64,000 nucleotides of DNA from Crambe crambe (lineage: Eukaryota > Porifera > Demospongiae > Poecilosclerida > Crambeidae): contig OZ004598.1 of the NCBI GenBank assembly GCA_963924555.1, positions 4,116,501 to 4,180,500 of the forward strand. Direction: 5' to 3'. Under the pieces are notes generated by a model, which was not told the DNA's origin, searched no databases, and saw only the letters and a program-made list of their open reading frames with translations. Positions 1,537 through 56,560 of the stretch are shown in pieces. Position numbers and translations under genes: made by a program. Numbering within the stretch: the first letter of the stretch is position 1; each line of letters begins with the position of its first letter.

Positions 1537-1680
1537 GTTAGTCAGTTGCCACGGAGATTAAACATTATTTTCCATGGACTATGGGCAGTATGACTTTTAT
1601 ACCGCCCACGCATGGGATATAAAATCCGCAGTACAATTTATAAATAGCACAGATTTATAAAACGTACCCAACAGCTACAT

Positions 1681-2496
1681 ATGAATTGCTTACTTTTTAA
1701 ATTTATCATTTTACCAGTTATACGTCCTGATATGGTGGTAGTGATTGGTGATATGATAGTCACAGTGGGAGATTCTGACAAACATGTCAACATCTATTCT
1801 AAAAAACTGTGGAGGAAAATAAGATCCTTCAAACTAGAGAAAAAAGGGGGAAAAGAACCATGTCCACGAGGAGTATCAACAGATGGTAAATATCTATTCA
1901 TTTCAGACAAAGCATATAAATCTATCACAAAGTACACAATTGAAGGTGAAAAAAAAGCTCAAACATTAAATTTTGATGGTTGTTGTGGCATTGCAATTGA
2001 CAAAGAGGAGAAAAGAGTATATGTAGCACATCAATCTGCTCATAAAATTGAAGTGCTGGGCTTGGATCTTAAATCGGTCAGCCTCGAATTTGGTGAAGAA
2101 GGTGATCAAAAGAAACAGTTCAAGCAACCTCGTGATGTGGCAGTGGCCAGAGTTGATGGCACTGTTTATGTTTATGTATCAGATACTGGCAATAACCGTA
2201 TACAAGTTTTCAAAGCTGATGGAGAATACGTCACAGAGTTTGGTAACACTGGTGATGACAAGCTTAGCGCACCTGCAGGAATATGCGTCGATCATGATAA
2301 CCGTGTATTGGTTGTTGATCATAATAATCACCGAGTATGTATCTTCAACTCCGGTGGAGAGTTACTCAAGTCATTTGGTAAAAACGAAGAAATCAAAGCA
2401 GATTTCAAAGACCTTATTGGCATAGCAGTTGGCCGTGATGGAAAGATCTACACAACAGACTATGCTGGTAACAGTCTGCAAGTTTTTGAACACTAA
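1681..2496 (+). CDS. NHL-repeat (beta-propeller) protein
   Basis: The frame encodes about 271 residues dominated by NHL repeats. Four are easy to see, each with the usual pattern of P-x-G-[IV]-x-V-D, a strand reading V-[VLI]-D-x-x-N-x-R-[VI]-x-[VI]-F, and a short G-turn. Examples are VYVSDTGNNRIQVF and VLVVDHNNHRVCIF; the last repeat ends IYTTDYAGNSLQVFEH just before the stop. Such repeats form a beta-propeller and occur in TRIM2/3- and TRIM71-like ubiquitin ligases and in many stand-alone animal proteins, where they bind RNA or protein. No RING or B-box is visible upstream in the window, so a TRIM identity cannot be claimed. The first ATG is at 1681, but an acceptor at about 1717 suggests this is really the last exon of a longer gene whose preceding exon encodes a membrane helix. 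Confidence 0.85.
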   Translation: MNCLLFKFIILPVIRPDMVVVIGDMIVTVGDSDKHVNIYSKKLWRKIRSFKLEKKGGKEPCPRGVSTDGKYLFISDKAYKSITKYTIEGEKKAQTLNFDGCCGIAIDKEEKRVYVAHQSAHKIEVLGLDLKSVSLEFGEEGDQKKQFKQPRDVAVARVDGTVYVYVSDTGNNRIQVFKADGEYVTEFGNTGDDKLSAPAGICVDHDNRVLVVDHNNHRVCIFNSGGELLKSFGKNEEIKADFKDLIGIAVGRDGKIYTTDYAGNSLQVFEH

Positions 2497-4702: not shown

Positions 4703-5611
4703 CTAACTATTTCTTGCACAACATGTACAGCATTTGTTTTTGCAGACGGAACAGAACTTCTTAATAGCGTCCCTAACTGGCTTCAGCACTATTATAGTGG
4801 CAATAGGGGTGCAAAATGCCACGAAGACGAGCACAGACTGCAGCAACTGTCTGCCTATGATGCCAGCCAGTGAGTCGAAGGTCTTCTTTTGAGCCAGGGG
4901 GGAAAATGTAGACACTGAATTCAAAATTACATTCAGGATAGCACCAGATGTGAGAATGATTGAATTCTTAGCAATGGCTTTTTTAATCTCGATGCTTCCT
5001 TCCAACACAGCTTTCTTCACATAGCATTGACTAATGATGGTGAAGGTAATAATGATAATCATACATCCAAGCACTATGACTGAAACCGTAATACTTTGTG
5101 CGAAAAATAACGGAGAAAGCTTAGTTCCACAAAATCCGTTCAATTCGAATGTTTTAGTATCAGCAGCATAGGACATTCCAAATAGAACTGCCACTACCCA
5201 ACTTATGGATATGTATGGAATGATGACATACCACTTGAGCTTTTTGGTGCCGTATTTCATAAATATATACACCATGATAGCATAGAGAGTGATAGATGGC
5301 ATGTAGGCCATTTTACTCACATTGAGCATAATGAATATCACTTTACATAGAGCTGTAGAATCCACTTCATCATCCGAGAGGATGATAATTGGGTAGCTGA
5401 GTAGAATAAAGGCCCGGGCAGTCAGCTGAACAATTTTAGCAGCAAAGATATTGAGGAGAGTTGCTCTCACTTTCCAGTTAATGGCATTGGCTAGGGGAAA
5501 AGCAATGATGCATAATATGCAGAGAACCATAGCAGGAAGTATGGCGAAAAAGAACAGCACTAACTGAAGGGCAGAATTTGCCAATTGAACTTGTGTCAGA
5601 TTGGATGACAT
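4703..5611 (-). CDS. Divergent seven-transmembrane receptor, paralogue A
   Basis: An intronless gene for 302 residues starting at the MSSNLT methionine (5611); a GTG four codons upstream is not needed. Seven hydrophobic segments are visible at roughly residues 15-40, 50-76, 86-112, 123-145, 162-190, 208-232 and 248-274. A cysteine at the start of segment 3 (STALCK) and one in the second outer loop (GFCGTK) could form the usual class A disulfide. DRY and NPxxY are not conserved; the last helix instead reads FCTPIATIIVLKPVRDAIKK, with a helix-8-like basic stretch. The tail ends in a cysteine cluster (CCTCC) that could be palmitoylated. Family-level homology to rhodopsin-like receptors is likely and the ligand is unknown. 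A paralogue about 90% identical by eye lies at 9998-10906 in the neighbouring duplicated unit. Confidence 0.82.
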   Translation of the reverse strand: MSSNLTQVQLANSALQLVLFFFAILPAMVLCILCIIAFPLANAINWKVRATLLNIFAAKIVQLTARAFILLSYPIIILSDDEVDSTALCKVIFIMLNVSKMAYMPSITLYAIMVYIFMKYGTKKLKWYVIIPYISISWVVAVLFGMSYAADTKTFELNGFCGTKLSPLFFAQSITVSVIVLGCMIIIITFTIISQCYVKKAVLEGSIEIKKAIAKNSIILTSGAILNVILNSVSTFSPLAQKKTFDSLAGIIGRQLLQSVLVFVAFCTPIATIIVLKPVRDAIKKFCSVCKNKCCTCCARNS

Positions 5612-5939
5612 GGTAATAGCCACAGACTACCTCTTTATTAGCTAGAATTGGCCAACAGTTAGAGAGCTCACTGATAGGTATAGAGCTAGAACTAATAATT
5701 CACACTGGAAAATGTAGAAACTTTTTACCACTTGGTGTCTCAGGAGTTAAGTTTTTGCATTACTGTCATTTACACTTCACATTCTGACCATTGACAGATG
5801 CTAGTTGAATGTGCATGCATGGGCATGTCATGCAGCCATGCATCTGGTACATTCAAATTCATGCTTCCATACATAATAGTCCTTGCATGGTTGTATTAAC
5901 AGCCAGGTTGTGGTGATAAAACTTATGGCAAGTGACTTC

Positions 5940-7078: not shown

Positions 7079-7799
7079 AAACCAATTAATATAGAGTACA
7101 AAGCTTAAAATTTTTTTGATCATCTGAAAAGGCCTCAAACAAGAAAGCCTTGAACAGCAACAGCTAGAAGCTACAAGTAAGCTTGAGAAAGCAGCAAGAA
7201 AGCCACCAAAACCATCAGCAGCAAGAGTGAAGGATAGGAACTAAGCAAACAAGCTATGACCACAGTAAGCAGTATAGTACTGGCCGGCCGGATCCTTAAT
7301 CTGACATCATAATCACACGCACAATGTTGCTCAAGCAGATCTGGCTTTGAAAAGGGTTATCTTGGAGAGTGCTGAATTGTTGGGCTACAAGCAGTATGAA
7401 TGCAAAAGCTGTGACTGTACTTTTGTACCATTACCCACAGGATATCTTGAAGCCACACCCCATTATGAAATATGACGTGTTACGTACATCCATCCAGAAA
7501 AAATCTGGACACTCACAGAACAACTTGACCATGCGAGTTTGACCAGACCCTTATTTTTTCAACCGCCCTGCGAAAAAAATAAGTGGGCTGGCTCCTTTTT
7601 TAAAAATTTGTTAAACAGATTCTAATCATAACTGATACCGTATCTTATCCTCAAAAATGTAGCTAAAATAATACAACATTTTATGTAGTTCCATAGTCTT
7701 TCACTTAATTCCAGTGTCTTGCCTTCCTCCAACCGTGATGGACATCCTGTGTTTCCCGCTAGCTACAAGACTCTAAAGTGAACTTGGCTCAATAAAATA

Positions 7800-9997: not shown

Positions 9998-10906
9998 TTA
10001 TCCACCTTCTTGCACAACATGTACAGCATTTGTTTTGCAGATGGAATAGAACTTCTTAATAGCGTCCCTAACTGGCTTCAGCACTATTATAGTGGCAACA
10101 GGGGTGCAAAATGCTACCAAGATGAGCACAGACTTCAGCAACTGTTTGCCTATGATGCCAGCCAGTGAGTCTGAGGTCTTCTTTTGAATCAGGGGAAAAA
10201 ATATAGACACTGAATTCAAAATTACATTCAGGATAGCACCAAATGTGAGAATGATCAGATTCTTACCAATGGCGTTTTTAATCTCGATGCTTCCTTCCAA
10301 CACAGCTTTCTTCACATACCATTGACCAATGACGGCGAAAGTAATAATGATAATCATACATCCAAGCACTATGACTGAAACAGTAATACTTTGTGCGAAA
10401 AATAACGGAGAAGGTTTAGTTCCACAAAATCCAATCAATTCGAATGTTTTAGTATCAGCAGCATAGGACATTCCAAATAGAACTGCCACTACCCAACTTA
10501 TGGATATGTATGGAATGATGACATACCACTTGAGCTTTTTGGTACCATATTTCATAAATATATACACCATGATAGCATAGAGAGTGATAGATGGCGTATA
10601 GGCCATTTTACTCACATTGAGCACAATGAATGCCACTTTACATAGAGCTGTAGAATCCACCTCATCATCCGAGAGGATGATAATTGGGTAGCTGAGTAGA
10701 AGAAAGGCCCGGGCAGTCAGCTTAACAATTTCAGCAGCAAAGATATTGAGGAGAGTTGCTCTCACTTTCCAGTTAATGGCATTGGCTAGGGGAAGAGCAA
10801 TGATGCATAATATGCAGAGAACCATAGCAGGAAGTATGGCGAAAAAGAACAGCACTAACTGAAGGGCAGAATTTGCTGATTGAACTTGTGTCAGATTGGA
10901 TGACAT
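9998..10906 (-). CDS. Divergent seven-transmembrane receptor, paralogue B
   Basis: A second intronless 302-residue 7TM gene, colinear with the one at 4703-5611 and differing at scattered positions. The membrane segments, the two candidate disulfide cysteines and the FCTPVATIIVLKPVRD end of helix 7 are kept, suggesting that the membrane part is under constraint. The C-terminus differs: one T fewer in a T-run near 10030 shifts the frame, so the tail ends KTNAVHVVQEGG in place of the cysteine cluster seen in paralogue A. The start is the MSSNLT methionine at 10906. Function and ligand are unknown; a chemosensory or other lineage-specific receptor is a reasonable guess only. Confidence 0.82.
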   Translation of the reverse strand: MSSNLTQVQSANSALQLVLFFFAILPAMVLCILCIIALPLANAINWKVRATLLNIFAAEIVKLTARAFLLLSYPIIILSDDEVDSTALCKVAFIVLNVSKMAYTPSITLYAIMVYIFMKYGTKKLKWYVIIPYISISWVVAVLFGMSYAADTKTFELIGFCGTKPSPLFFAQSITVSVIVLGCMIIIITFAVIGQWYVKKAVLEGSIEIKNAIGKNLIILTFGAILNVILNSVSIFFPLIQKKTSDSLAGIIGKQLLKSVLILVAFCTPVATIIVLKPVRDAIKKFYSICKTNAVHVVQEGG

Positions 10907-11279
10907 GGTAATAGCCACAGACTACCTCTTTATTAGCTAGAATTGGCCAACAGTTAGAGAGCTCACTGATAGGCATAGAGCTAGAACTAATAATTCACAC
11001 TGGAACATGTAGAAACTTTTTACCACTTGGTGTCTCAGGAGTTAAGTTTTTGCATCACTGTCATTTACACTTCACATTCTGACCATAAATTAGGCACCAA
11101 ATGTGTGGCCTGCATTGAAACAATACAGTACATGTTAAAAGATAATCAGATGAGACCCCAACTAAAATTAATTAGAAGTAATAAAATGCCACCACGCTGT
11201 GTGCTCAATGGTTTGGAAGTGATTCCCATACCAGTTGAGTTGACTAGATCAGACGAGGGATGCTGATGATGATCCTGAT

Positions 11280-43600: not shown

Positions 43601-44579
43601 AAGTAGGTAAGAATGGAGGGGAAAGGACTGAACCCATCTATAATTGCAAAAATAGATTAAAGAAAGAGGTCAGTCATATAAAGGGTACCTTAAAATAGAT
43701 CCTATATTGAAAGGGTAATAAAATACATAAAATGGATTAAGTAGCAAAGATGTATATCTCTCGACTACTACTTAAGGGGTCACTCTCTCGAATTAAGATT
43801 ATTATATCCAAAAAAAAAAAAAAGAACTTAATTAAGCAACAGAGGGCTGAAGTAATGCTGATCTCCATCAATAATGTTAAGGTCCCCCTCAATAGAAAAA
43901 CGACTAGTCTAAACGTAACTTGCTCAATTTGTGACCAACGTTCCTGGCTACTCATAGAAAGTTGCCGGTCATTATTAGAAACTTGGAAATTTGAGGAATT
44001 ACAGCAATCATATGGGGTTTAATGCTATTCTGTGCCGGCTTCTTTACAATCATTATGAAACCAGGAAAAACAAAACCTTGTTTGATAATGCATGTGACAT
44101 CATTGCATTGATTTCGTTTCCTTCTTTATTTTTGTTGTTGCTTTTTGGTAGCTTCTAAACAGTGCTCACAGCAGTAATAATTAGATAGTCCTATCCCATA
44201 ACTATAGGAATTTGGCATCAATCGACTGGACAAATTAGGGAAATTGGCTTTAAAATGTCCTGGATACTATCAAAGTACTGCTGATATTAATTAAATGGCT
44301 GCATTATAATTATCTATTGCATAATTTAATACCAAATGTGTTCCACTTTTTGGGGTCCATAGGAACCCCAAGTGTGTTTCGGGGAAAGACCTCTTCGCTT
44401 AGATTCAGCTTGACCCCTGTGGTTGTCTCTTGGGATGGCACAGTGAAGTAGGCATTGGGAAAAGGCAAGCCACAGTAATCTGGAACCAAAGGATCACAGG
44501 CAGACCTTTTTTCCACACTTCCACTCGGGAAGGAGAAGACAACCAGGAGAGAAAAGACCGGATACCTTGATAATTTCAT
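27304..44579 (-). CDS. Secreted alpha/beta hydrolase-like protein, about 17 exons
   Basis: The first exon (44579-44333) encodes a signal peptide ([17 protein letters not shown]) and a motif [18 protein letters not shown]. Further exons lie at about 43637-43506, 43313-43259, 42975-42864, 40475-40393, 39858-39789, 39602-39495, 37896-37768, 35051-34763, 33893-33755, 33567-33499, 31378-31293, 31228-31160, 31092-31054, 28039-27847, 27509-27439 and 27362-27304, giving about 640 residues. The QYGHGLFGS segment looks like an oxyanion-hole motif, [12 protein letters not shown] is a G-x-S-x-G nucleophile elbow, and [12 protein letters not shown] supplies a candidate catalytic histidine. The end reads [17 protein letters not shown]. 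From memory this architecture matches uncharacterised secreted proteins of bacteria such as myxobacteria; the substrate is unknown (esterase or lipase is an inference). Introns are unusually large for the window and full of tandem repeats. Confidence 0.8.
28515..28765. repeat. Tandem repeat, about 105 bp unit, three copies
   Basis: Units contain AGGGTGCTCAGTACTA, CACCTGAGCCCACA and GCAGCAAAGCTT followed by TTTCCTAGAA-TNATTATT. Three diverged copies in an intron of the hydrolase gene. Confidence 0.75.
29107..29170. repeat. 12 bp tandem repeat with CCATGGCAAC units
   Basis: Four near-perfect copies of ATCCATGGCAAC. Each contains GGCAAC, the half-site of RFX factors, but the full palindromic X-box is not formed. 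Intronic in the hydrolase gene. Confidence 0.85.
29890..30065. repeat. About 50 bp tandem repeat, four diverged copies
   Basis: Units centre on CAGCTGCTAATAGGAATAAGGCAG; copies begin at about 29896, 29957, 30008 and 30043. Intronic, no coding pattern. Confidence 0.7.
30949..31004. repeat. (CT)n microsatellite
   Basis: About 56 bp of CT in a hydrolase-gene intron, followed 100 bp later by (ATC)n and (AAC)n runs at 31107-31151. Confidence 0.95.
32330..33440. repeat. Nested local repeats (GTGTCCTGATCAG units and larger duplications)
   Basis: A hydrolase-gene intron region. The 33 bp GAGCAAGTGCAGCAGTAAG block occurs at 32346 and 32522; the TATGGTTGAA...CACTGAAAGACTT block at about 32909 and 33074. 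At 33226-33335 a 15 bp unit (AGGTGTCCTGATCAG) repeats about six times, then twice more in longer form near 33345 and 33410. The last motif resembles the interior of the CAGTGGAACC MITEs. Confidence 0.7.
35052..35170. repeat. Polypurine (GGGA)n tract at a hydrolase acceptor
   Basis: On the gene strand this is a (TCCC)n pyrimidine tract ending in CTCTCAG, the acceptor of the exon that carries the GHGLFG motif (35051-34763). Confidence 0.85.
35947..36140. mobile_element. Long-TIR foldback element (copy 3)
   Basis: The best-preserved copy: arms TTGATCATTCGCTATAACTT and the complementary AAGTTATAG...GTGAATGATCAAGG, inner TTCTTAACCAAATT and AATTTGGTTAAGAA. The loop carries GAGAGTGGATAATCAGCTCTC. 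In an intron of the hydrolase gene. Confidence 0.8.
36190..36720. repeat. Diverged satellite-like tandem repeats
   Basis: TTAACAGGAGACACCTCTGG recurs at about 36207, 36238, 36270, 36493 and, changed, at 36380, 36535 and 36605. A second motif (AAGGCAATTACTCTCTGATT) alternates with it at about 36330, 36432 and 36650. Together they suggest a decayed satellite of roughly 100-150 bp units in a hydrolase-gene intron. Confidence 0.65.
37190..37560. repeat. About 115 bp tandem repeat, three copies
   Basis: Each copy carries AATCCTTCCAGACATTGAA, a GGGGGACATTGAACT-type block, GTGACCCC and a GCACTACTAT block. Copies at about 37195-37360, 37370-37480 and 37485-37570; intronic in the hydrolase gene. Confidence 0.7.
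37914..37937. repeat. poly(G)/poly(C) run at a hydrolase acceptor
   Basis: On the gene strand a poly(C) run followed by TCTTCTCTCTTTGCAG, the acceptor of the exon starting at about 37896. The donor side of the same exon is followed by another polypyrimidine stretch (37600-37765). Confidence 0.85.
39186..39236. mobile_element. CCAGGCCCTC hairpin
   Basis: A perfect hairpin: CCAGGCCCTCCTCTCTCAC and its complement around a loop of about 10 bp. The same CCAGGCCCTC/GAGGGCCTGG motif forms the ends of the larger element at 54321-54945, so this may be a solo end. Confidence 0.55.
39790..40095. repeat. Tandem copies that include part of a hydrolase exon
   Basis: The 5' portion of the exon at 39858-39789 (GAGAGGAAGTCCCTTCAAT on the gene strand) and adjoining intron (ACAATATTAT-type block) are repeated at about 39905-39970, 39985-40045 and, shortened, 40055-40095. 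The outer copies have lost a clean reading frame and are presumably spliced out. Confidence 0.7.
40538..40603. repeat. (CT)n microsatellite
   Basis: About 66 bp of CT preceded by a short (AC)n run at 40505-40525, in a hydrolase-gene intron. Confidence 0.95.
42596..43155. repeat. Polypyrimidine and polypurine tracts flanking a hydrolase exon
   Basis: 42596-42730 is (CCTCC)n-rich on the plus strand; 42996-43150 is (GGGA)n-rich, so pyrimidine on the gene strand, leading to the acceptor of the exon at about 42975 ([10 protein letters not shown]). The two tracts could form mirror-repeat triplex structures. Confidence 0.75.
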
Positions 44580-45137
44580 TCTCTCTGAATTTCCACACGA
44601 CTCATTTTAATACAAGATTGAGAATAAAGAAAGCCCCGCTCTCCTGAAGTAGGCTAGCCTGCGCTCTTCGCTTCTCGCCAAGGCTAGCTACAGCTGCTCC
44701 CTGGGGTCAGCCACAGATGGGCGGGGCTGGCAGCCTAGTGAAATTCTACAATGGGTAAGTGCCTTGCTTGATTGACGACGACGCGCGACAAGCAATTAGG
44801 TTTTCCTCCTTTACAGCGTGGTCGCGCGGCTAGGCGAAAGGCGGAAACACAATTCTCGGAAAATGAGACAATCAAAACATTAACACTAATAATGAATATG
44901 ATCAGAGAGAGAGGTTTGGAGTATAAAACCCCACTGCTAAAACCCCTTCATGGCTCTGCTAATTTTAGTTTCAAGTGAGCAACGGAGAGATAGTTGCGAT
45001 ACTTTGAAGAATAACTTATACAACAAGGAAGAAAATTATATTTATTTACTGTAAGTGGAGAGATATATGCTAGTTAGCTCTTGGTAACTTAGCTAGATAA
45101 CCTAGCAGAAACTCAGAAATCCGAACGGTTTTTTAAA
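44580..45137. other. Divergent intergenic region; possible short ORF or 5' UTR exons
   Basis: Lies between the hydrolase start (-) and the SH2 gene start (+). An ATGG followed by a strong GTAAGT donor at about 44755 can be joined to an acceptor at about 44799 to give a 60-residue frame (GRAARRKAETQFSENETIK ... ending 44977). I do not recognise the product. It could equally be untranslated first exons of the downstream gene, whose own start codon at 45138 has an in-frame stop shortly upstream. Confidence 0.3.
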
Positions 45138-47559
45138 ATGCAGCATCAAGATATGGAATTCGTTCCACAAACAAGTACTTCCACAGATCCAATCTTAATC
45201 GATTCAGACAGAGAATCGACAAAGTCTGACAGCGAGAGTGAACCAGTGACTCTGCCAGCCAAAGCACAGGACATGTTCATCTGGAATGCAAAATATGAGG
45301 TGAAAAAAATATTTACTACTATAGCTAATGTTATTATTGCAGTTTGGAAAATCATCCATGCATTGCAAGATCTTGAGCTTCTTCGATCTTTTAAAAGTCA
45401 ACTTATTATTTTTTTTTTTTAGAAATGGCATGAATGTTCTGTCTCTTTTCACCCACCTATGTTGCAAGTGGTGGAGTACGAAGACCAGAAACTGGAGGTG
45501 AGGAGTTTAACAACAATAACAATGATAATAGTTCAATAGAATTAGTTCTCATAAAATTAGCTTATGAAACAAACCACCAATGTTTCGACCAGAATACTCT
45601 AGCCTTCATCAGGGTGATGAGAATAATAAGCAGAGAATGATAATAGTATTAATCAACTGGCATGATTCACCTTCTTTCTTTCCTTTCTCACTTCCATCCA
45701 AAACAGATCGATGAAAATGTACTGAAACACTTGACTCAACCGTAAGTGTCACTATTAAACTAGTGTAATTATAGTATGTGACAGTGTAGGGAGGAATCTA
45801 ATCCCCCAATCCAGTTACAATTAGCCAAATGACGTATTTCCATTGCATATTTTCATTTTCCTCTTCTTGCGGTTATTGAGCAATTAATTTGGTAATCTTT
45901 TTGAAGACGCTTTTTTTATAAAATCTACACTATTATTTATTACCACTTATTTCGTTTTGTCACTTCAGTTGGTATCATGGAAATCTCTCAAGACGAGAGG
46001 CTAGAGTTACTCTCCACGATTTCAGTGGAGGGGAAGGATCTTTCTTAGTGAGAGTCAGTGAAAGTTTCCATGGAAAGTATGCAATTTCATTCATGTGAGT
46101 TAATAGACTTTAATAATGATATTGAAAATTCCACTAAATACATTAAAATGAAGTTTTTTAATAATAGGCTTTAGTGAACTATGAGACTACCATTGACCTA
46201 TAGCTAAAGACACAGTTTATTGTCAATAGTCCTTTGATGGGCCTATGGACACACCACTAGTCTGACCTGGTGCTAAGCAACAGTGTCTGTTGATAGATTC
46301 TTAGTAAAGTTATACTAGCTATATAGCCCCTTTGAGTTGAGCGGCTCCTGGAAAATGGGAAACCTTAAAATAGTTGATTTAATCACACATACTTGGAAGG
46401 ATGATATCATGATATGATGTCATAAACCTTTGAGTGTCAGTATGTGTTAGTTTACTGACAGGTACACTCATAGCATGACATCACAACCTTGTATACCAGA
46501 CAGAGTCTTTTTATCATAGCATAATGGAGTGAGGCTTGCTATTGTAATCCTAAAAACCTTTTAAGTTCTTTTGCTTGATTTTAATAATGCCTCCTCTTTT
46601 CCCTTCACTTGTAGTCACGAGGAAAGTGTGAAGCACGTTGTGATAGAGAGCAAGCGAGACCCAGTGGCTGGAGTTCTATACAACATCACTCCAAGTGGCC
46701 CTGTCTTCAACTCACTCTACGAACTCATCGAAGAGGCACAAAAGACACCTCTTATTCAAAATCACATGTTCAACATTCAGCTTACATGTTCCCCACCAAA
46801 GGTGACTTGCTTATTATTATGCTAATTACAAGAGCTTATAAGTGGGGGAGGACGTTCAGGTTCATTTCATAATACCTTGAAGACTACATTGGATTAATCA
46901 TTTATTTATTTATCTGCAGCCTGACATGGTGTGGTTGCACAAAGGCGTCAAATCTCTCTCGCAGGCCGAGCAAATCCTGAGGAAAGAACACAGGGACGGC
47001 GCTTTCTTCGTATACAAGACACAGTCCCAATACGCCCCCTACATTGTCGCTTATAGGTGAGTTATGACCTTTAAACTTTATACTATGGGTACCTTAAATA
47101 CAGTGGAGCCCCTGTGGACTCCCTTGAAACGAGGACACCTCTCTAATCAGGACACTTTTTTTCTGGTGCCTGCATGGAGAGGTTCAGGTAGCATAAATAT
47201 CCTTCTCCTTGAGGTTCAGGTGGCATGAATATCCTTCGGAGTGTGGTAATGCTGACAGAGTGATAAAAATGAATCTTGATATTTCCTTGAATGTTGTGAA
47301 TACACTCATAACAATATACACTACCACATTCTTCATTCTCAGAAAAATGAATAACTAGGAAAATAGCCCTTCCCCAAGGAAACCCGGCCCTTCCCCAAAA
47401 TCAGTCTATTTGTTGTCCTAAACCAAAAGTTGATAACTCTTGACATCTCCCAAAGGTAAATCCAGTCGTTATGATTGTGTGGTCAAGGATTTGATAAGTT
47501 ATCCTTATACTTTCAATATGTGCGTAATGATTATCATTGTACTCTCTGCCTCCCTCCCC

Positions 47560-47597
<38 letters not shown>

Positions 47598-49081
47598 CCT
47601 CTCTATAGGTCCGAAGGCAGTATCCGGCACAATCTGATCGTACACAATCAACAGAATCACAGCACCTGCTACACTCTTAATCACGTTTCTTCACAAGTAT
47701 TATACAAAGTCATCCATTACTTCATGGAAAACCCAATCAACGAAAAAACTGTGCTTAGATATCCCGTCCCAGATAGAACAGTAAGTCAAATAAATGATAC
47801 ATCAAGCATGCTTTGTGAAATTCTAAACCATCTCTGTTGCTACTAGAATTACTGAAGTGTATATATAATATGGTTTTAAAAAGTAGTCGAAAACATTGAA
47901 TAGGGTGTTTTTTTACAGATGTAATTTGTACTGAGAAACATTTCCAAGTATAGGCTGTTCCATTGTCAATAGGAGTTAGTGTCCCTTGAATGGGGGGAGT
48001 AGCCAAGGTGTGTTGGGATCTGTGTTGGCTTGATAAAGACAGGAATGTCATTAACCTTGTAAAAAATATATATAAAAAAAGGTGTGCTATTGAAAAGCAC
48101 AAGAGCGCCTCTTCTAGTTGGCATGAAGTATTTTTATAGTCAGGAAACCAACCCCACAAGTTTTTATCATAGCTACAGTAATAGCCACATTATAACTAGT
48201 TATGAAACTGAATCAAGTCCTTAGACACATCATTTCCTGCAATGCTGAAGTTCTATACTGTTCAGGAGTAGCCCCCCTTATGGAGATGACAACTCTAACA
48301 AATATCCTACAGCACATGATTTCCAGGAATTCCAATTTAGCTAACAGGAAGATTCATGTTGTCAACCCATATAAAGTTACCGCTACATGGTTGCTAATAC
48401 ACTATAGATAGGAATGAGCCATAGAGCCATAGGCGTATTTATGGTGGCTCAAACAAACCTGATCCTTTCATGTCCTATAATATAGGACTGTGCAGTTGTG
48501 TAAACCATAAATTGCATGACAACCAACCTACAATGGATGTGGCTTAGGTACTTTAAAGTGGACTCTTTGAAGAGTTGTAAAAAACATTATTTCTCTCTGT
48601 CCCAGTGGAATAAAGAGTTGACCTTTTTATCTATTCTCTAGTCCACCATCACTAATTGCGGGGTTGCCCTCAAGGATTGGCTGGGAGACAGAGAAATGAA
48701 TGAACTCCACTTCCACTACGGGGCACTCGTGACCAACATTCAGGATAAGACCAAGGAGTGGTCCCTGGGAGATCACAGAGGAGACAAACAGAAATACTTC
48801 AAAAGGAGTCACGTCAGACTTCTCACAAGAGACGAATTGGCTTATATCAATGAGATGGTGAGTTTCTTGTTCTTGGACAATACTGTAGACCCAACTTAAA
48901 TGTACCCACTATTAATGTCTATTGGGTCTTTGTTATCAATTGTGGCTGCCCAGTGTTGTACTTTCTGGTACTATGAATGGTCAAGATAAAGGCATCTTAG
49001 CAACCAGTTTGTTTGGTTACTGACATCAAAGTTTTAAAATGATAATGGGGTGAAGTAAGTAATTAACCATGAACAACTGTT

Positions 49082-49152
<71 letters not shown>

Positions 49153-50135
49153 CAGAGGAGAATACAGAGCAAACCAATTCTTTCTGATTCTACGTCAGAA
49201 GGAAACAATTCCACTCACGACTGCAATCAAACCATTGAGCTTTGTCTACGGAACAACTACAAAGTGGATTTCCAACAAAGAGAAGAACAGCACAGGTCTA
49301 CTGTTATCATTATTCGACCTTCGAACTTATCAGAGGAGAAATATCAAAGCTACAAGCTATCTTGTCCTTCAATTGAAGTAAGTATGAAATGGTTACCAGT
49401 TAGCTAACAAAACTGCTTCTAGATTTTGGCCCTCCTTCCTGCTAGGGATGAGCAACCTTAATTAATAGGGAGGTGGTGAAAGCCTCCTTTGTATAGGATT
49501 CAACAAAACCCAACCTGGTCAGGGAGGTTGAAAATAGCTGGGGTAGGTGCTGTTGTGGTGGAGTTGATAGAGAGATGGTATCTTTAAAGTGGAGTGGCAG
49601 AGAATAGGGTGGTCTGACATTAGAAGGTTGAGCAATCATGCTCCACTATAGACCCCCCACTTTAATAACACATTGGATAAAATTATACTCCTTTTTGAGT
49701 AGAGCAATAATTAGTGGGAGCCATAGAGCTAAGATGTTTCCTCCTAATTTCCTCCATTGAGTCAGGGCAATAACAGGAAAGATCACCTTTTGAGTTTCAC
49801 CCATACTTACTAGTATACTATCAATAGGAGGTTTCCTTCATACCCCAGGCCACTACATCTGATATTGGCTTTCTGAATTTTGATAGACCAGCTGTTGGTG
49901 GCTCCCCATTACTATAGACAATTTTTTTGGAGCCCAGCAATTTTGAATACTAAAAAAAATGAGTTGGTTTTGGAATTAAAAATTAAATAATGCTTTTTTT
50001 TTTCCCCTTCAGGATGTGGATTCTTGGTACCAATCACTTAGCAAAGCCAACTGCCTACCTAAAGTGAGACAAAGGTCATCCTATCAGTTCTCATCCAGAG
50101 TCTCAAAGCTGAACAACAGATGCACCATAAGCTAG
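45138..50135 (+). CDS. Stand-alone PLC-gamma-type regulatory array (split PH-SH2-SH2-SH3-split PH)
   Basis: Ten exons (45138-45299, 45423-45497, 45707-45741, 45969-46094, 46615-46801, 46920-47056, 47609-47780, 48642-48857, 49156-49377, 50013-50135) encode 484 residues. An acidic N-terminus is followed by what looks like the first half of a split PH domain (about 43-80, MFIWNAKYEKWHECS), an SH2 (92-190, WYHGNLSRREA, FLVR with Arg119), a second SH2 (200-290, WLHKG), an SH3 (305-360, MNELHFHYGALVTNI) and the second half of a PH (395-456, ending DVDSWYQSLSKA). This order is that of the gamma-specific array inserted between the X and Y catalytic halves of phospholipase C-gamma; the catalytic halves, EF hands and C2 are absent, and the gene ends with a stop and AATAAA at about 50165. 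The second SH2 reads FFVY where FLVR is expected. A signalling adaptor or competitor of PLC-gamma is the likely role (inference). Confidence 0.85.
47566..47594. repeat. (CT)n acceptor tract, SH2-array gene intron 6
   Basis: CT array immediately before the acceptor at 47608; acts as polypyrimidine tract. Confidence 0.9.
49086..49148. repeat. (CT)n acceptor tract, SH2-array gene intron 8
   Basis: About 63 bp of CT ending seven bases before the acceptor at 49155. Confidence 0.95.
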
Positions 50136-51502
50136 CACAAGTGACTCAATCCAGAACCTCACTTAATAAATACACTCTCTCCTCAATTGCCTTTTTTTTA
50201 AAACTACCTACTCATTGCAATGTCAACTTGAATGTGGAAATATTTTCATCAGATAAAGTTTCTATCATACAAATGTGTGGATTCTTAAATTTCTTTTCTT
50301 ATCTTTGCTCACATTATTTATTTCAATTTCAAGTTATTATTATGGAATGAAATTTCAATTTCAAGTTAATATGATGGCATGATAGACATGAGGTCACCTA
50401 ATTAATGTGAATTTAGGGGGGGGGGGGGGTCGGTTCTTTTCAAGCTGAAAAACCAATCCCCCACAATCTGACTATTCAGTACATGAAATGCCTTGGCAAG
50501 AATGCTACATGGCTGCATTGAATGGAACACCACAATCTGAAATGCCTGAATAGGGAGGTTGTAGTGGCTTTGACTCCAAGGCCAATGGCATACAATTATT
50601 AGAGATCCAGAGCCAAGGGCTGTGAGAGTTCCAGTCCATTTATGAGGAAGAGGAGGTTTTGGCAGACATGCACAGTCTAAGGCAGGTAGACTCCTCAGAC
50701 TACAGTGCAGCCAATAGTGATGAGGAGGGAGGTTTTTGGCAGGCATTGTCTAAAGGAATGTAGTCCTAAGACTACAGACTCAGCCAATAAGCAATGACTG
50801 CCAAATCTCACTATCATCTCTGTGGCTCCAGATTTTACTGCATCTATCGTCTGTCCTATTATGAGAGCTAAAGATGTAGCTAAATTGCAAATTTTAAGCT
50901 CTCAGATTTGAAACCACTGTTTAACTTCCAACAAAACTATAGCCAGTATAATATTATAAGGCCCAAAATTTTTTTGGTGATCAACATCAGGACCAGTCAA
51001 CTAGCTAGCAGGACTAATTCTTCAATGTTTGCTGATATCAGCTGCTTTTACATCACAACAGAATCAGGATCCGATATTCCAAGAACTACTCTTTCCTTAT
51101 GGAATTTTCATGACAAAGTAGTTATAAATGAAAGGAATCCCCCCTAAATTATTGAATTTCTCCTGAAATAAGCAGCCTTAGAAAAAACAAACACACTAGC
51201 TATGTGGCTGGGATCTTGAGAGCTTTACCGAGAATTGAGTCTACACTACAAGTCAACACCTGTGGTTGCTTAGGTTACCAAGTGTATTAATAAACATGTT
51301 TACGTTTGAAAATAGTATAGTTAATAGCCAAGTGCTTAATACTCTGTAAGTGTGCCCATTACCAGTCCAGTACTATATCTACCCTTTACCAAATCTCCAA
51401 CAGCTTATTGCACTCACTTAAAGGTCCTAACTTTCTCGTCTTGGCCTGGGTTTAAGGGTAATGGCTAACTATTAAATAAACCATGATAGAGTAGAGACGA
51501 AT
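50136..51502. other. Convergent intergenic region
   Basis: Between the 3' ends of the SH2-array gene and DGCR6. It holds the AATAAA of the former near 50165, a poly(G) run at 50416-50429, and a duplicated block around GAGGAGGTTTTGGCAGACATG (50645) and GAGGGAGGTTTTTGGCAGGCAT (50725). I see no gene. Confidence 0.6.
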
Positions 51503-52117
51503 TCATGTGCTGTTTTCAATATTCCTAAGTTGTGATAGTTTCTGGATGAATCTCAAAATCTGGATCTGAACTTGAATGTCAAATGAGTTGTTGGTGACCA
51601 TGAAGAGGGGCACAGCTGCTTGGCACAGCGTTGACTGCTGATCGCTCACAACCTGATCTAGTTCCAGGATTATCGCTTGATCTTTTGACTTCAACTCTTC
51701 AGCCAAAGTCTTCTCAAGAATAGATTTCTCCTTTTCATGGTCTGCCTTTAAGAGAGGCAATTGGTGTGGCTTATGTCTACAAAGCGCTATTTCTTCAAAA
51801 TGTCTCTTAGTCATTTCAAGTTTTCTCATTTTGTGCTCACCAACTACTTTCATCCGTTTATTTAACAAATTTCTTTCAGTGAGTGATTGTATATCTTCCA
51901 GTTCTTGGACAATTTCGAATACTGTATTATCCAATAGGGAGAGTGCCAAGTCTTTCATATGACGGTCTGTCATTCTCTGTTTTAGATTAGGAGCCAAGGA
52001 ATTGCGATACTTGCAGAGGTTGGCAAAGAAGAGGTCAAATTTAGCACGAGTTTCCTTGGGGAGCCTGTCAGCATCTGATGGGCCGTAGTTGATACCCTGA
52101 GGGTTTCGATGTGCCAT
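51503..52117 (-). CDS. DGCR6 / gonadal family protein
   Basis: A single-exon gene of 204 residues starting MAHRNPQGINYG. Diagnostic segments match the DGCR6 family: LALSLLDNTVFEIVQELEDIQ, LTERNLLNKR, a central helical region with HKPHQLPLLKADHEKE, and the hallmark ILELDQVVSDQQSTLCQAAVPLF followed by FxVTNN and a C-terminal QILRFIQKLSQL helix. The vertebrate gene lies in the DiGeorge region and the Drosophila relative gonadal is expressed in the germ line; the biochemical role is unclear. The protein looks largely alpha-helical and coiled-coil. Single-exon structure contrasts with its neighbours and may reflect retroposition or intron loss. Head-to-head with the PLA2G15-like gene 620 bp away. 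Confidence 0.93.
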   Translation of the reverse strand: MAHRNPQGINYGPSDADRLPKETRAKFDLFFANLCKYRNSLAPNLKQRMTDRHMKDLALSLLDNTVFEIVQELEDIQSLTERNLLNKRMKVVGEHKMRKLEMTKRHFEEIALCRHKPHQLPLLKADHEKEKSILEKTLAEELKSKDQAIILELDQVVSDQQSTLCQAAVPLFMVTNNSFDIQVQIQILRFIQKLSQLRNIENST

Positions 52118-55337: not shown

Positions 55338-56560
55338 GATTAGTGTATGATCCAGTCACTCATAAGTACAGTGATGCTCCAGGGGTTACAACTCGTATCC
55401 CTGGATTCGGAGATACAAGTAGCGTAGAATACTTGGATCCTGACACCAAGTGGTTTGAGGTCACCCAATATTTCTATGCTATGGTTACCCACTTTGTGAA
55501 CAAAGGCTATACCAGAGGCAAGGACATTGTAGGTGCTCCATACGATTGGAGATTCTCACCCAGTAAGTACAATGCTAATATCAGAGGATGCTGTAGCATC
55601 ATACCCAGGATTTGTGTGAAGGAGCCCAGATACAAGGCTAAGGATGATTTTGTAGAATTTCAGGGTCTTCTTGGCTTACCCCATAGCTACGTAGGGAACT
55701 AGAATGTCATAATGCTATTAAATTTGTGGTGTGGCATTCAAACCATGAAAATTTCACCCCTCAAAATTTTGTGCTATATCTCATTAACTATTATAGAGCA
55801 GTATGTTGAGCAGGACTACTATGGGAGACTGAAGACCCTTATTGAGACCACCTATGCTAATAATGATAACCAGCGTGTGGTGCTGATAGCTCACAGCATG
55901 GGTGCACCCACCACTTTATACTTCCTCACTAAAATTGTCGACCAAGAGTGGAAGGATACTCACATTAGAGACTATATTACTCTCTCTGGCGTGTGGCATG
56001 GTGCTGCCAAATCAGTCAAGGCGTTTGCTTCGGGGGATAATGAGGGGATATGGATTGTTCCTGAAAGCAAAGGCCGAGCAGGTCAACGTACGTATCCGGC
56101 AAATGCCTGGTTACTTCCTTTCCCATCTGATACGTGGCCCAAGGACACCATTCTTGTCAAAACTCCAAGTAGAAACTATAGCGCTTGGGATTACAAGGAT
56201 TTATTTACAGATATGAAGTACGAGAGAGGTTACGAGATGTTTGAAGAGATTGAAAACCTTACTGGCTCTCTTCCAGCCCCCAATGTTACCCTGCATTGCT
56301 TATATGGAAGTAATATCAAAACTCCCTTGCAGTTTATATACGGAGAAGGTGATTTCCCAGACACCCAGCCATCAGTTATTAACGGGGATGGTGATGGTAC
56401 TGTTAATATCCGAAGCCTAATGGCTTGTAGCAGATGGCAATCTATGCAGACGTATAAAGTGACCCTGCAAAATTTTAGTGGTGTAGAACACGTGCATACT
56501 ATCAAGAATCCTGATGCTATCAAATATGTGGACAATGTTGTATACAATTCATTTCACTAA
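52738..56560 (+). CDS. Lysosomal phospholipase A2 (PLA2G15/LCAT family)
   Basis: Four exons (52738-52819, 55071-55230, 55339-55562, 55797-56560) encode 409 residues, close to the 412 of human PLA2G15. Exon 1 is a signal peptide (MIRLFALVCVVVSFTLCSC); the mature protein opens with LVLVPGILGNQLEGKL, the oxyanion-loop region of the family. Then come HYLC, RLVYDPVTH, FGDTSSVEYLD and GYTRGKDIVGAPYDWR. The nucleophile is in AHSMG, the acid in NGDGDGTVNI and the histidine in GVEHVH, completing the Ser-Asp-His triad; a cysteine near HYLC probably forms the lid disulfide. Family knowledge: the enzyme hydrolyses and transacylates glycerophospholipids in acidic lysosomes. After the nucleophile the usual PWGG reads VWHGAAK, a small change near the active site. 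Intron 1 (2.25 kb) carries a tandem duplication and two TIR elements. Confidence 0.95.
53024..53158. repeat. 67 bp direct repeat, two copies
   Basis: GAGTATGTGTGCACTTCC to GGTGATTTGGCTRTAA occurs twice in tandem in intron 1 of the PLA2G15-like gene, nearly identical, so recent. Confidence 0.9.
53815..53910. mobile_element. Foldback element, TAGTCTGGC family (copy 2)
   Basis: Arms TAGTCTGGCGTTGCCGACCC and GGGTCGGCAGTACCAGACTA enclose a CCTAGCCCTAGCCC stretch. Same tips as the element at 7006. In intron 1 of the PLA2G15-like gene. Confidence 0.7.
54321..54945. mobile_element. Non-autonomous TIR element of about 620 bp
   Basis: The left end (GCCTCGTCCCCAGGCCCTCC, then a short hairpin closing with GGAGGGCCTGGTACACGA) is repeated in inverted orientation at the right end (GCGTACCAGGCCCTCC ... 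GGGGGAACGAGGC). Each terminus is itself a hairpin, so four copies of the CCAGGCCCTC motif are present. The interior (about 54380-54885) has no reading frame with recognised domains. Lies in intron 1 of the PLA2G15-like gene. Confidence 0.75.
55271..55334. repeat. (CT)n acceptor tract, PLA2G15-like intron 2
   Basis: About 64 bp of CT ending directly in CACAG, the acceptor of exon 3. The whole intron is about 108 bp, so the repeat is more than half of it. Confidence 0.95.

What the first reader, a model, noticed from the sequence alone, without database searches (positions are those of the whole stretch)
45138..50135. A free-standing PLC-gamma regulatory array without a lipase
Domain order split PH, SH2, SH2, SH3, split PH is, as far as I know, found only as the insert between the catalytic X and Y boxes of phospholipase C-gamma. 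Here it appears to be a complete gene with its own start, stop and poly(A) signal, with both PH halves retained. In PLC-gamma this array autoinhibits the enzyme and docks receptors, so a soluble version could compete for receptors, act as an adaptor, or inhibit PLC-gamma in trans.
Basis: partly seen in the sequence, partly recalled or inferred. Interest (0 to 1): 0.8.

Follow-up and report, generated by a model that had tools for sequence, protein, structure and literature searches.

The report
Stand-alone PLC-gamma regulatory array gene
An animal genome carries, besides a normal PLC-gamma signalling enzyme, a separate gene that looks like only that enzyme's regulatory insert, with one phosphotyrosine-reading site that looks intact and the enzyme's off-switch parts worn away, so it is probably an adaptor or decoy rather than an enzyme.

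Summary
Ten exons (45138-50135) with GT-AG introns give one 484-aa frame. A PLC-gamma profile aligns to it collinearly from the first PH half through SH2, SH2 and SH3 to the second PH half (387 columns, E 2e-23). No X/Y catalytic match lies in the window. The gene lies between a divergent gene (ATG 44579) and a convergent DGCR6 gene. A PLC-gamma gene with X, array, Y and C2 sits 1.36 Mb away on the same contig. The two share three introns exactly in position and phase, so this is a strongly diverged partial paralogue.

The nSH2 keeps its phosphotyrosine Arg. The cSH2 has lost its Arg (R to Y), and the Tyr-Arg pair whose double-Glu mutant is constitutively active in PLC-gamma1 reads Asn-Glu. 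The Tyr783-type linker is missing and the SH3 pocket is degraded. Trans-autoinhibition is therefore unlikely; an nSH2-driven adaptor or competitive decoy is likelier. The N-terminal PH half is not significant on its own; the C-terminal half is better supported. Expression, splicing and function are untested.

The parts
44922..44928 (+). TATAAAA, candidate core promoter element
   Evidence: consensus only
45138..45299 (+). exon 1: start codon, Ser/Asp/Glu-rich N-terminus, first strand of the N-terminal PH half
   Evidence: ends in a phase-0 intron at the same alignment column as the PLC-gamma gene
45423..45497 (+). exon 2: rest of the N-terminal PH half and acidic loop
   Evidence: not significant on its own
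45707..45741 (+). exon 3: 35-nt linker exon
45969..46094 (+). exon 4: nSH2 first half with intact FLVR motif
46615..46801 (+). exon 5: nSH2 second half; shared phase-2 intron before it
46920..47056 (+). exon 6: cSH2 first half, FLVR Arg replaced (FFVYK)
47609..47780 (+). exon 7: cSH2 second half, NPINEK in place of this genome's PLC-gamma NPLYRR; shared phase-2 intron before it
48642..48857 (+). exon 8: SH3 domain, ligand pocket degraded
49156..49377 (+). exon 9: linker and C-terminal PH half (strands)
50013..50135 (+). exon 10: PH C-terminal helix, tail, stop codon (50133-50135)
50165..50170 (+). AATAAA polyadenylation signal
   Evidence: consensus only

Best explanation
A partial, DNA-level (intron-bearing) duplicate of a PLC-gamma gene's regulatory array became a separate gene and then diverged a long way. 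Its product is a soluble non-enzymatic phosphotyrosine adaptor. The nSH2 binds phosphotyrosine sites on activated receptors or scaffolds, probably overlapping those used by PLC-gamma, so when abundant it competes with PLC-gamma for docking and damps IP3/calcium signalling, or delivers another partner through the remaining surfaces (cSH2, SH3 and PH folds no longer under their old ligand constraints). Shown: an intact gene structure, the domain homology, the absence of catalytic exons nearby, the separate PLC-gamma gene, and the loss or retention of key residues. Inferred: expression, folding, what the nSH2 binds, and competition.
For: Collinear PLC-gamma homology over the array. Three introns shared exactly in position and phase with the PLC-gamma gene (9 against 8 introns; chance of 3 or more 9e-6 under random placement; positions), plus two more in matching linkers in phase but not exactly alignable (compared by eye). 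The cSH2 groups with PLC-gamma cSH2s, support 95/95, on a long branch. No X/Y match in the window, against strong matches in the PLC-gamma gene. Boxed in by a divergent gene starting at 44579 and DGCR6 at 51503-52117. Open frame kept at 24-27% protein identity: unselected substitution of the 547-codon PLC-gamma array to 30% identity leaves 20 stops on average and never under 9 in 200 simulated runs, which argues for selection on the protein over most of its history. nSH2 pocket residues kept (alignments). In PLC-gamma1 the nSH2 is the kinase-docking domain (PMC7004563, passages), and a recombinant tandem SH2 fragment of PLC-gamma acts as a dominant negative in starfish eggs (PMC8508623, passage).
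Against: No expression data, no orthologue from a second species, no binding data. nSH2 specificity is unknown; at 24-27% identity its targets may no longer overlap those of PLC-gamma. The nSH2 tree placement is unsupported (34/53), and trees with the two SH2s swapped are not rejected (AU p 0.25 and 0.11). The simulation ignores indels and this genome's base composition and assumes divergence from something like the present PLC-gamma. Recent loss of function cannot be excluded.
Confidence: 0.5

Rival explanations
1. Natural trans-inhibitor: the free array clamps the lipase core (split PH on the TIM barrel ridge, cSH2 on C2) as the built-in array does.
For: Same domain order; in PLC-gamma1 these two interfaces lock the array on the core (PMC7004563, passages).
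Against: The cSH2 Tyr-Arg pair reads Asn-Glu, resembling the Y747E+R748E mutant described as constitutively active; cSH2 Arg lost; SH3 degraded; first PH half weak.
Confidence: 0.08
2. Generic SH2 adaptor or scaffold with no remaining link to PLC-gamma signalling: the nSH2 was re-targeted within this genome's large phosphotyrosine network.
For: High divergence; the genome has at least 135 SH2 matches and a kinase-domain cluster on C16; the only pocket that looks intact is the nSH2.
Against: Array architecture kept whole, suggesting some constraint from the original arrangement.
Confidence: 0.3
3. Recently decaying or untranscribed duplicate (pseudogene).
For: Loss of several ligand pockets; no expression evidence.
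Against: No stop or frameshift in 484 codons and 9 canonical introns at a divergence where about 20 stops are expected without selection; TATA-like and AATAAA signals.
Confidence: 0.08
4. Part of a larger gene: X/Y exons lie outside the window or are joined by trans-splicing.
For: The frame stays open for 15 codons upstream of the ATG and AG dinucleotides occur there.
Against: A divergent gene starts 558 bp upstream and a convergent DGCR6 gene lies downstream; of the 13 X and 7 Y matches in the genome the only ones on this contig are in the PLC-gamma gene 1.36 Mb away.
Confidence: 0.04

Closest known systems
PLC-gamma regulatory array (gamma-specific array of PLC-gamma1/2; also the PLC-gamma gene at C21:5536088-5531077)
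   Same: order split PH, SH2, SH2, SH3, split PH; three exactly shared intron positions with this genome's PLC-gamma; nSH2 FLVR motif
   Different: no X, Y or C2; 24-27% identity; cSH2 Arg, Tyr783-type linker, SH3 pocket and the cSH2 Tyr-Arg contact lost; own Ser/Asp/Glu-rich N-terminus
Recombinant tandem-SH2 PLC-gamma fragment used as dominant negative in starfish eggs (PMC8508623, passage)
   Same: a PLC-gamma SH2 pair without catalytic domain
   Different: a laboratory construct; this is a natural gene in which only one of the two SH2 pockets looks intact
PRIP, PLC-related but catalytically inactive protein (search listing only; structure recalled)
   Same: a PLC relative without lipase activity
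   Different: PRIP keeps X/Y in dead form and has no SH2 domains (recalled)
SH2/SH3 adaptors such as Grb2, Crk, Nck (recalled)
   Same: SH2 and SH3 domains, no enzyme
   Different: different order, no split PH, and their SH3 pockets are functional

Membership tests
PLC-gamma enzyme | catalytic X and Y boxes | tested here: not met
   no PF00388/PF00387 match in the window; tblastn of the PLC-gamma X and Y parts gives nothing better than E 1.3 in the window, against 6.5e-73 (X) and 4.6e-68 (Y) in the PLC-gamma locus
PLC-gamma enzyme | array order split PH, SH2, SH2, SH3, split PH | tested here: met
   collinear hhalign over 387 columns, E 2.3e-23; first PH half not significant alone
PLC-gamma enzyme | cSH2 phosphotyrosine pocket and Tyr783-type linker tyrosine (activation switch) | tested here: not met
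   FLIR/FLVR reads FFVY; linker short and without tyrosine (alignments; pocket rules recalled; role of Tyr783 from PMC7004563)
PLC-gamma regulatory array, as a homologous module | shared gene structure with PLC-gamma | tested here: met
   3 introns identical in position and phase
functional phosphotyrosine-binding SH2 (nSH2) | conserved Args and His | tested here: met
   SRREA, FLVRVSES, VKHVV in the alignment (residue roles recalled)
functional phosphotyrosine-binding SH2 (nSH2) | binds phosphopeptide | not testable with these tools
   needs a binding assay
split PH domain | two halves fold together | tested here: inconclusive
   C-half PH-like; joined halves score no better than with shuffled N-halves; full protein not folded (see Tried and rejected)
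SH2/SH3 adaptor | SH3 polyproline pocket (two Tyr, Trp, Pro, Tyr; recalled) | tested here: not met
   ALYDY reads ALKDW, FPANY reads FKRSH; first Trp kept

The most novel reading that the evidence does not exclude
The gene is not a broken-off copy but descends from a free-standing array that existed before it was inserted between X and Y to create PLC-gamma, so it would be a relict of the module that built the enzyme family.
Probability: 0.03. Interest if true: 0.9.

Novelty: new variant of a known kind. Interest (0 to 1): 0.5.

Why it matters
PLC-gamma's array is both the recruiting and the locking part of the enzyme. A natural gene that keeps the array but drops the enzyme, with recruiting residues kept and locking and switching residues lost, separates the two roles and may be a natural version of the dominant-negative tandem SH2 construct used in the laboratory. 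If confirmed it would be a direct way to ask how an animal with a rich tyrosine-kinase and SH2 repertoire controls calcium signalling.

Tried and rejected
Rejected: missing catalytic exons nearby; retrocopy (introns present, some shared); recent copy of the PLC-gamma locus at DNA level (blastn gives only CT-repeat matches and pieces at E 0.77).

Led nowhere: structure prediction of the SH3 exon alone, pLDDT 55.7, pTM 0.25, an all-helical and unusable model; scans of viral contigs and genome contigs, no relatives, as expected for collections of viruses and prokaryotes; a blind PDB search with the N-terminal 91 aa, only a bromodomain at E 1.1; a bacterial promoter/terminator scan of 44580-45137, not informative for an animal gene; a tRNA scan, 0 found. 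The joined-halves PH test looked good at first (E 0.003), but its control with shuffled N-halves did as well, so I do not count it. A script timed out and was rerun faster; early gene-model scripts had off-by-one exon ends, corrected; one search failed on a file name; misread loci of the minus strand, corrected.

Literature: listings only, several of them capped, (15 of 24 papers listed; 13 of 13; 15 of 45; 1 of 1; 12 of 279; 2 of 2; 9 of 9; 6 of 33); passages of PMC7004563, PMC8508623 and PMC9097458. No listed title or abstract start described a free-standing PLC-gamma array; this is an open-licence library and no animal proteome could be searched.

Full report
What is there. The window lies at C21:4116501-4180500 of an unnamed 143-Mb genome, an animal by its gene content (inferred). 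Ten exons between 45138 and 50135, all introns GT-AG, give 484 aa. An in-frame stop lies 15 codons before the start; TATAAAA lies at 44922-44928 and AATAAA at 50165-50170. Pfam finds two SH2 stretches, with SH3 and PH below threshold. The best ten of 192 PDB matches are all PLC-gamma. A three-sequence PLC-gamma profile (this genome's own PLC-gamma plus mammalian PLC-gamma1 and PLC-gamma2 copied; alignment) aligns collinearly over 387 columns from the start of the first PH half to the last helix of the second, E 2.3e-23.

Is it more than chance? SH2, SH2 and SH3 are beyond reasonable doubt: 0 of 20000 shuffles reach the SH3 score. The second PH half is well supported in the alignment to PLC-gamma (3 of 20000), and a blind PDB search puts dynamin PH domains first, though only at E 0.1. 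The first PH half is not significant alone: 1583 of 20000 shuffles reach its score, a window at aa 274 scores higher, no PDB PH hit appears, only about 15 of its residues align well, and joining the halves does not beat joining shuffled N-halves. What supports it is position, collinearity, and a phase-0 intron at column 13 of the PH block in both this gene and the PLC-gamma gene.

Is it a separate gene? X and Y models find 13 and 7 matches in the whole genome and none in the window. A tblastn of the PLC-gamma X and Y parts gives nothing better than E 1.3 in the window, while the same queries give 6.5e-73 and 4.6e-68 in the PLC-gamma locus. Upstream, a minus-strand gene with a signal-peptide-like start begins at 44579; its first exon (to 44333) joins in frame to a second from 43637. 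Downstream, a DGCR6 gene lies convergently at 51503-52117 (PF07324, 1.4e-44). There is no room for neighbouring lipase exons; trans-splicing or very distant exons are not formally excluded.

Where did it come from? The same contig carries a PLC-gamma gene at 5536088-5531077 on the minus strand, which I modelled from just before the X box to the stop (16 exons, one intron GC-AG; its upstream exons were not modelled). Pfam finds in it the PLCG EF-hand motif 2, X, two SH2, SH3, Y, C2 and a PH half. Against it, the array gene shares three introns exactly in position and phase (first PH half; nSH2; cSH2); random placement would give three or more with probability 9e-6. Two more lie in matching linkers in the same phase but cannot be aligned exactly; four array introns and three PLC-gamma introns are not shared (read by eye). 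A tree of 24 SH2 domains (the two of the array, six of PLC-gammas, and 16 others of this genome chosen from the 30 fetched of 135 matches) puts the array's cSH2 with PLC-gamma cSH2s at 95/95, on a long branch; its nSH2 falls with PLC-gamma nSH2s at only 34/53. Swapped placements are not rejected (AU p 0.25 and 0.11). Protein identity to this genome's PLC-gamma is 27% by BLAST over 337 columns and 24% to the profile by hhalign.

Is it alive? Random substitution of the 547-codon PLC-gamma array to 30% identity leaves 20 stops on average, at least 9 in each of 200 runs; the array gene has none. It was therefore probably protected by selection for most of its history, unless its ancestor was quite different. 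Transcription is untested.

How does it work? By alignment the nSH2 keeps the Args and His of a phosphotyrosine pocket (roles recalled). The cSH2 has Tyr in place of its Arg. PLC-gamma1 Tyr747-Arg748, whose double-Glu mutant is described as constitutively active (PMC7004563, passages), corresponds to Asn-Glu; I assigned this by the only Tyr-Arg pair in the domain. The stretch that carries Tyr783 in PLC-gamma1 is short and has no tyrosine. The SH3 has lost the Tyr, Pro and Tyr of its pocket but keeps the first Trp. So the recruiting site that starts PLC-gamma activation (nSH2 docks on kinases) survives, while the lock and the switch do not. The most economical reading is an adaptor or competitive decoy acting through nSH2; a tandem SH2 fragment of PLC-gamma is used as a dominant negative in starfish eggs (PMC8508623, passage). 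The genome offers ample phosphotyrosine context: 135 SH2 matches and 160 matches to the Tyr/Ser-Thr kinase model (both lower bounds, and the kinase model also matches Ser/Thr kinases).

Novelty. It is a known module in a new, enzyme-free setting: a new variant of a known kind. None of eight paper searches listed a report of such a gene (listings only, several capped), but no animal proteome collection could be searched, so how widespread it is remains open.

Noticed in passing
G000:C21:5536088-5531077 (L017): PLC-gamma gene of the same genome (EF-hand motif, X, array, Y, C2), with one GC-AG intron after the X-box exon that ends at 5534946.
   Followed up: yes
window 47542-47604 and 49085-49148; L017 about 7173-7241: Long CT dinucleotide runs sit just upstream of 3' splice sites in both the array gene and the PLC-gamma gene, apparently serving as polypyrimidine tracts.
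   Followed up: partly
window 4703-5626 and 9998-10921, minus strand: Two very similar 307-aa frames that look by eye like seven-transmembrane proteins, no Pfam match at E 0.01.
   Followed up: no
window 55703-56560 (+), 1648-2496 (+): LCAT-family acyltransferase exon (2.8e-50) and an NHL-repeat frame (1.4e-20).
   Followed up: no
window 44579-44333 and 43637 downwards, minus strand: Divergent gene with signal-peptide-like start ([20 protein letters not shown]...), two exons read in frame.
   Followed up: partly
G000:C5:1468041-1522148: Dense tandem cluster of SH2 domains, with two in some open frames.
   Followed up: no
G000:C14:3697948-3702252: Three weak SH2-like matches (E 6e-4) spaced exactly 2058 bp apart inside an open frame of 9513 aa: a giant repetitive frame.
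   Followed up: no
G000:C16:4976850-6050423: 26 listed matches to the Tyr/Ser-Thr kinase model in about 1.1 Mb, most in open frames of several hundred aa: a large local expansion.
   Followed up: no
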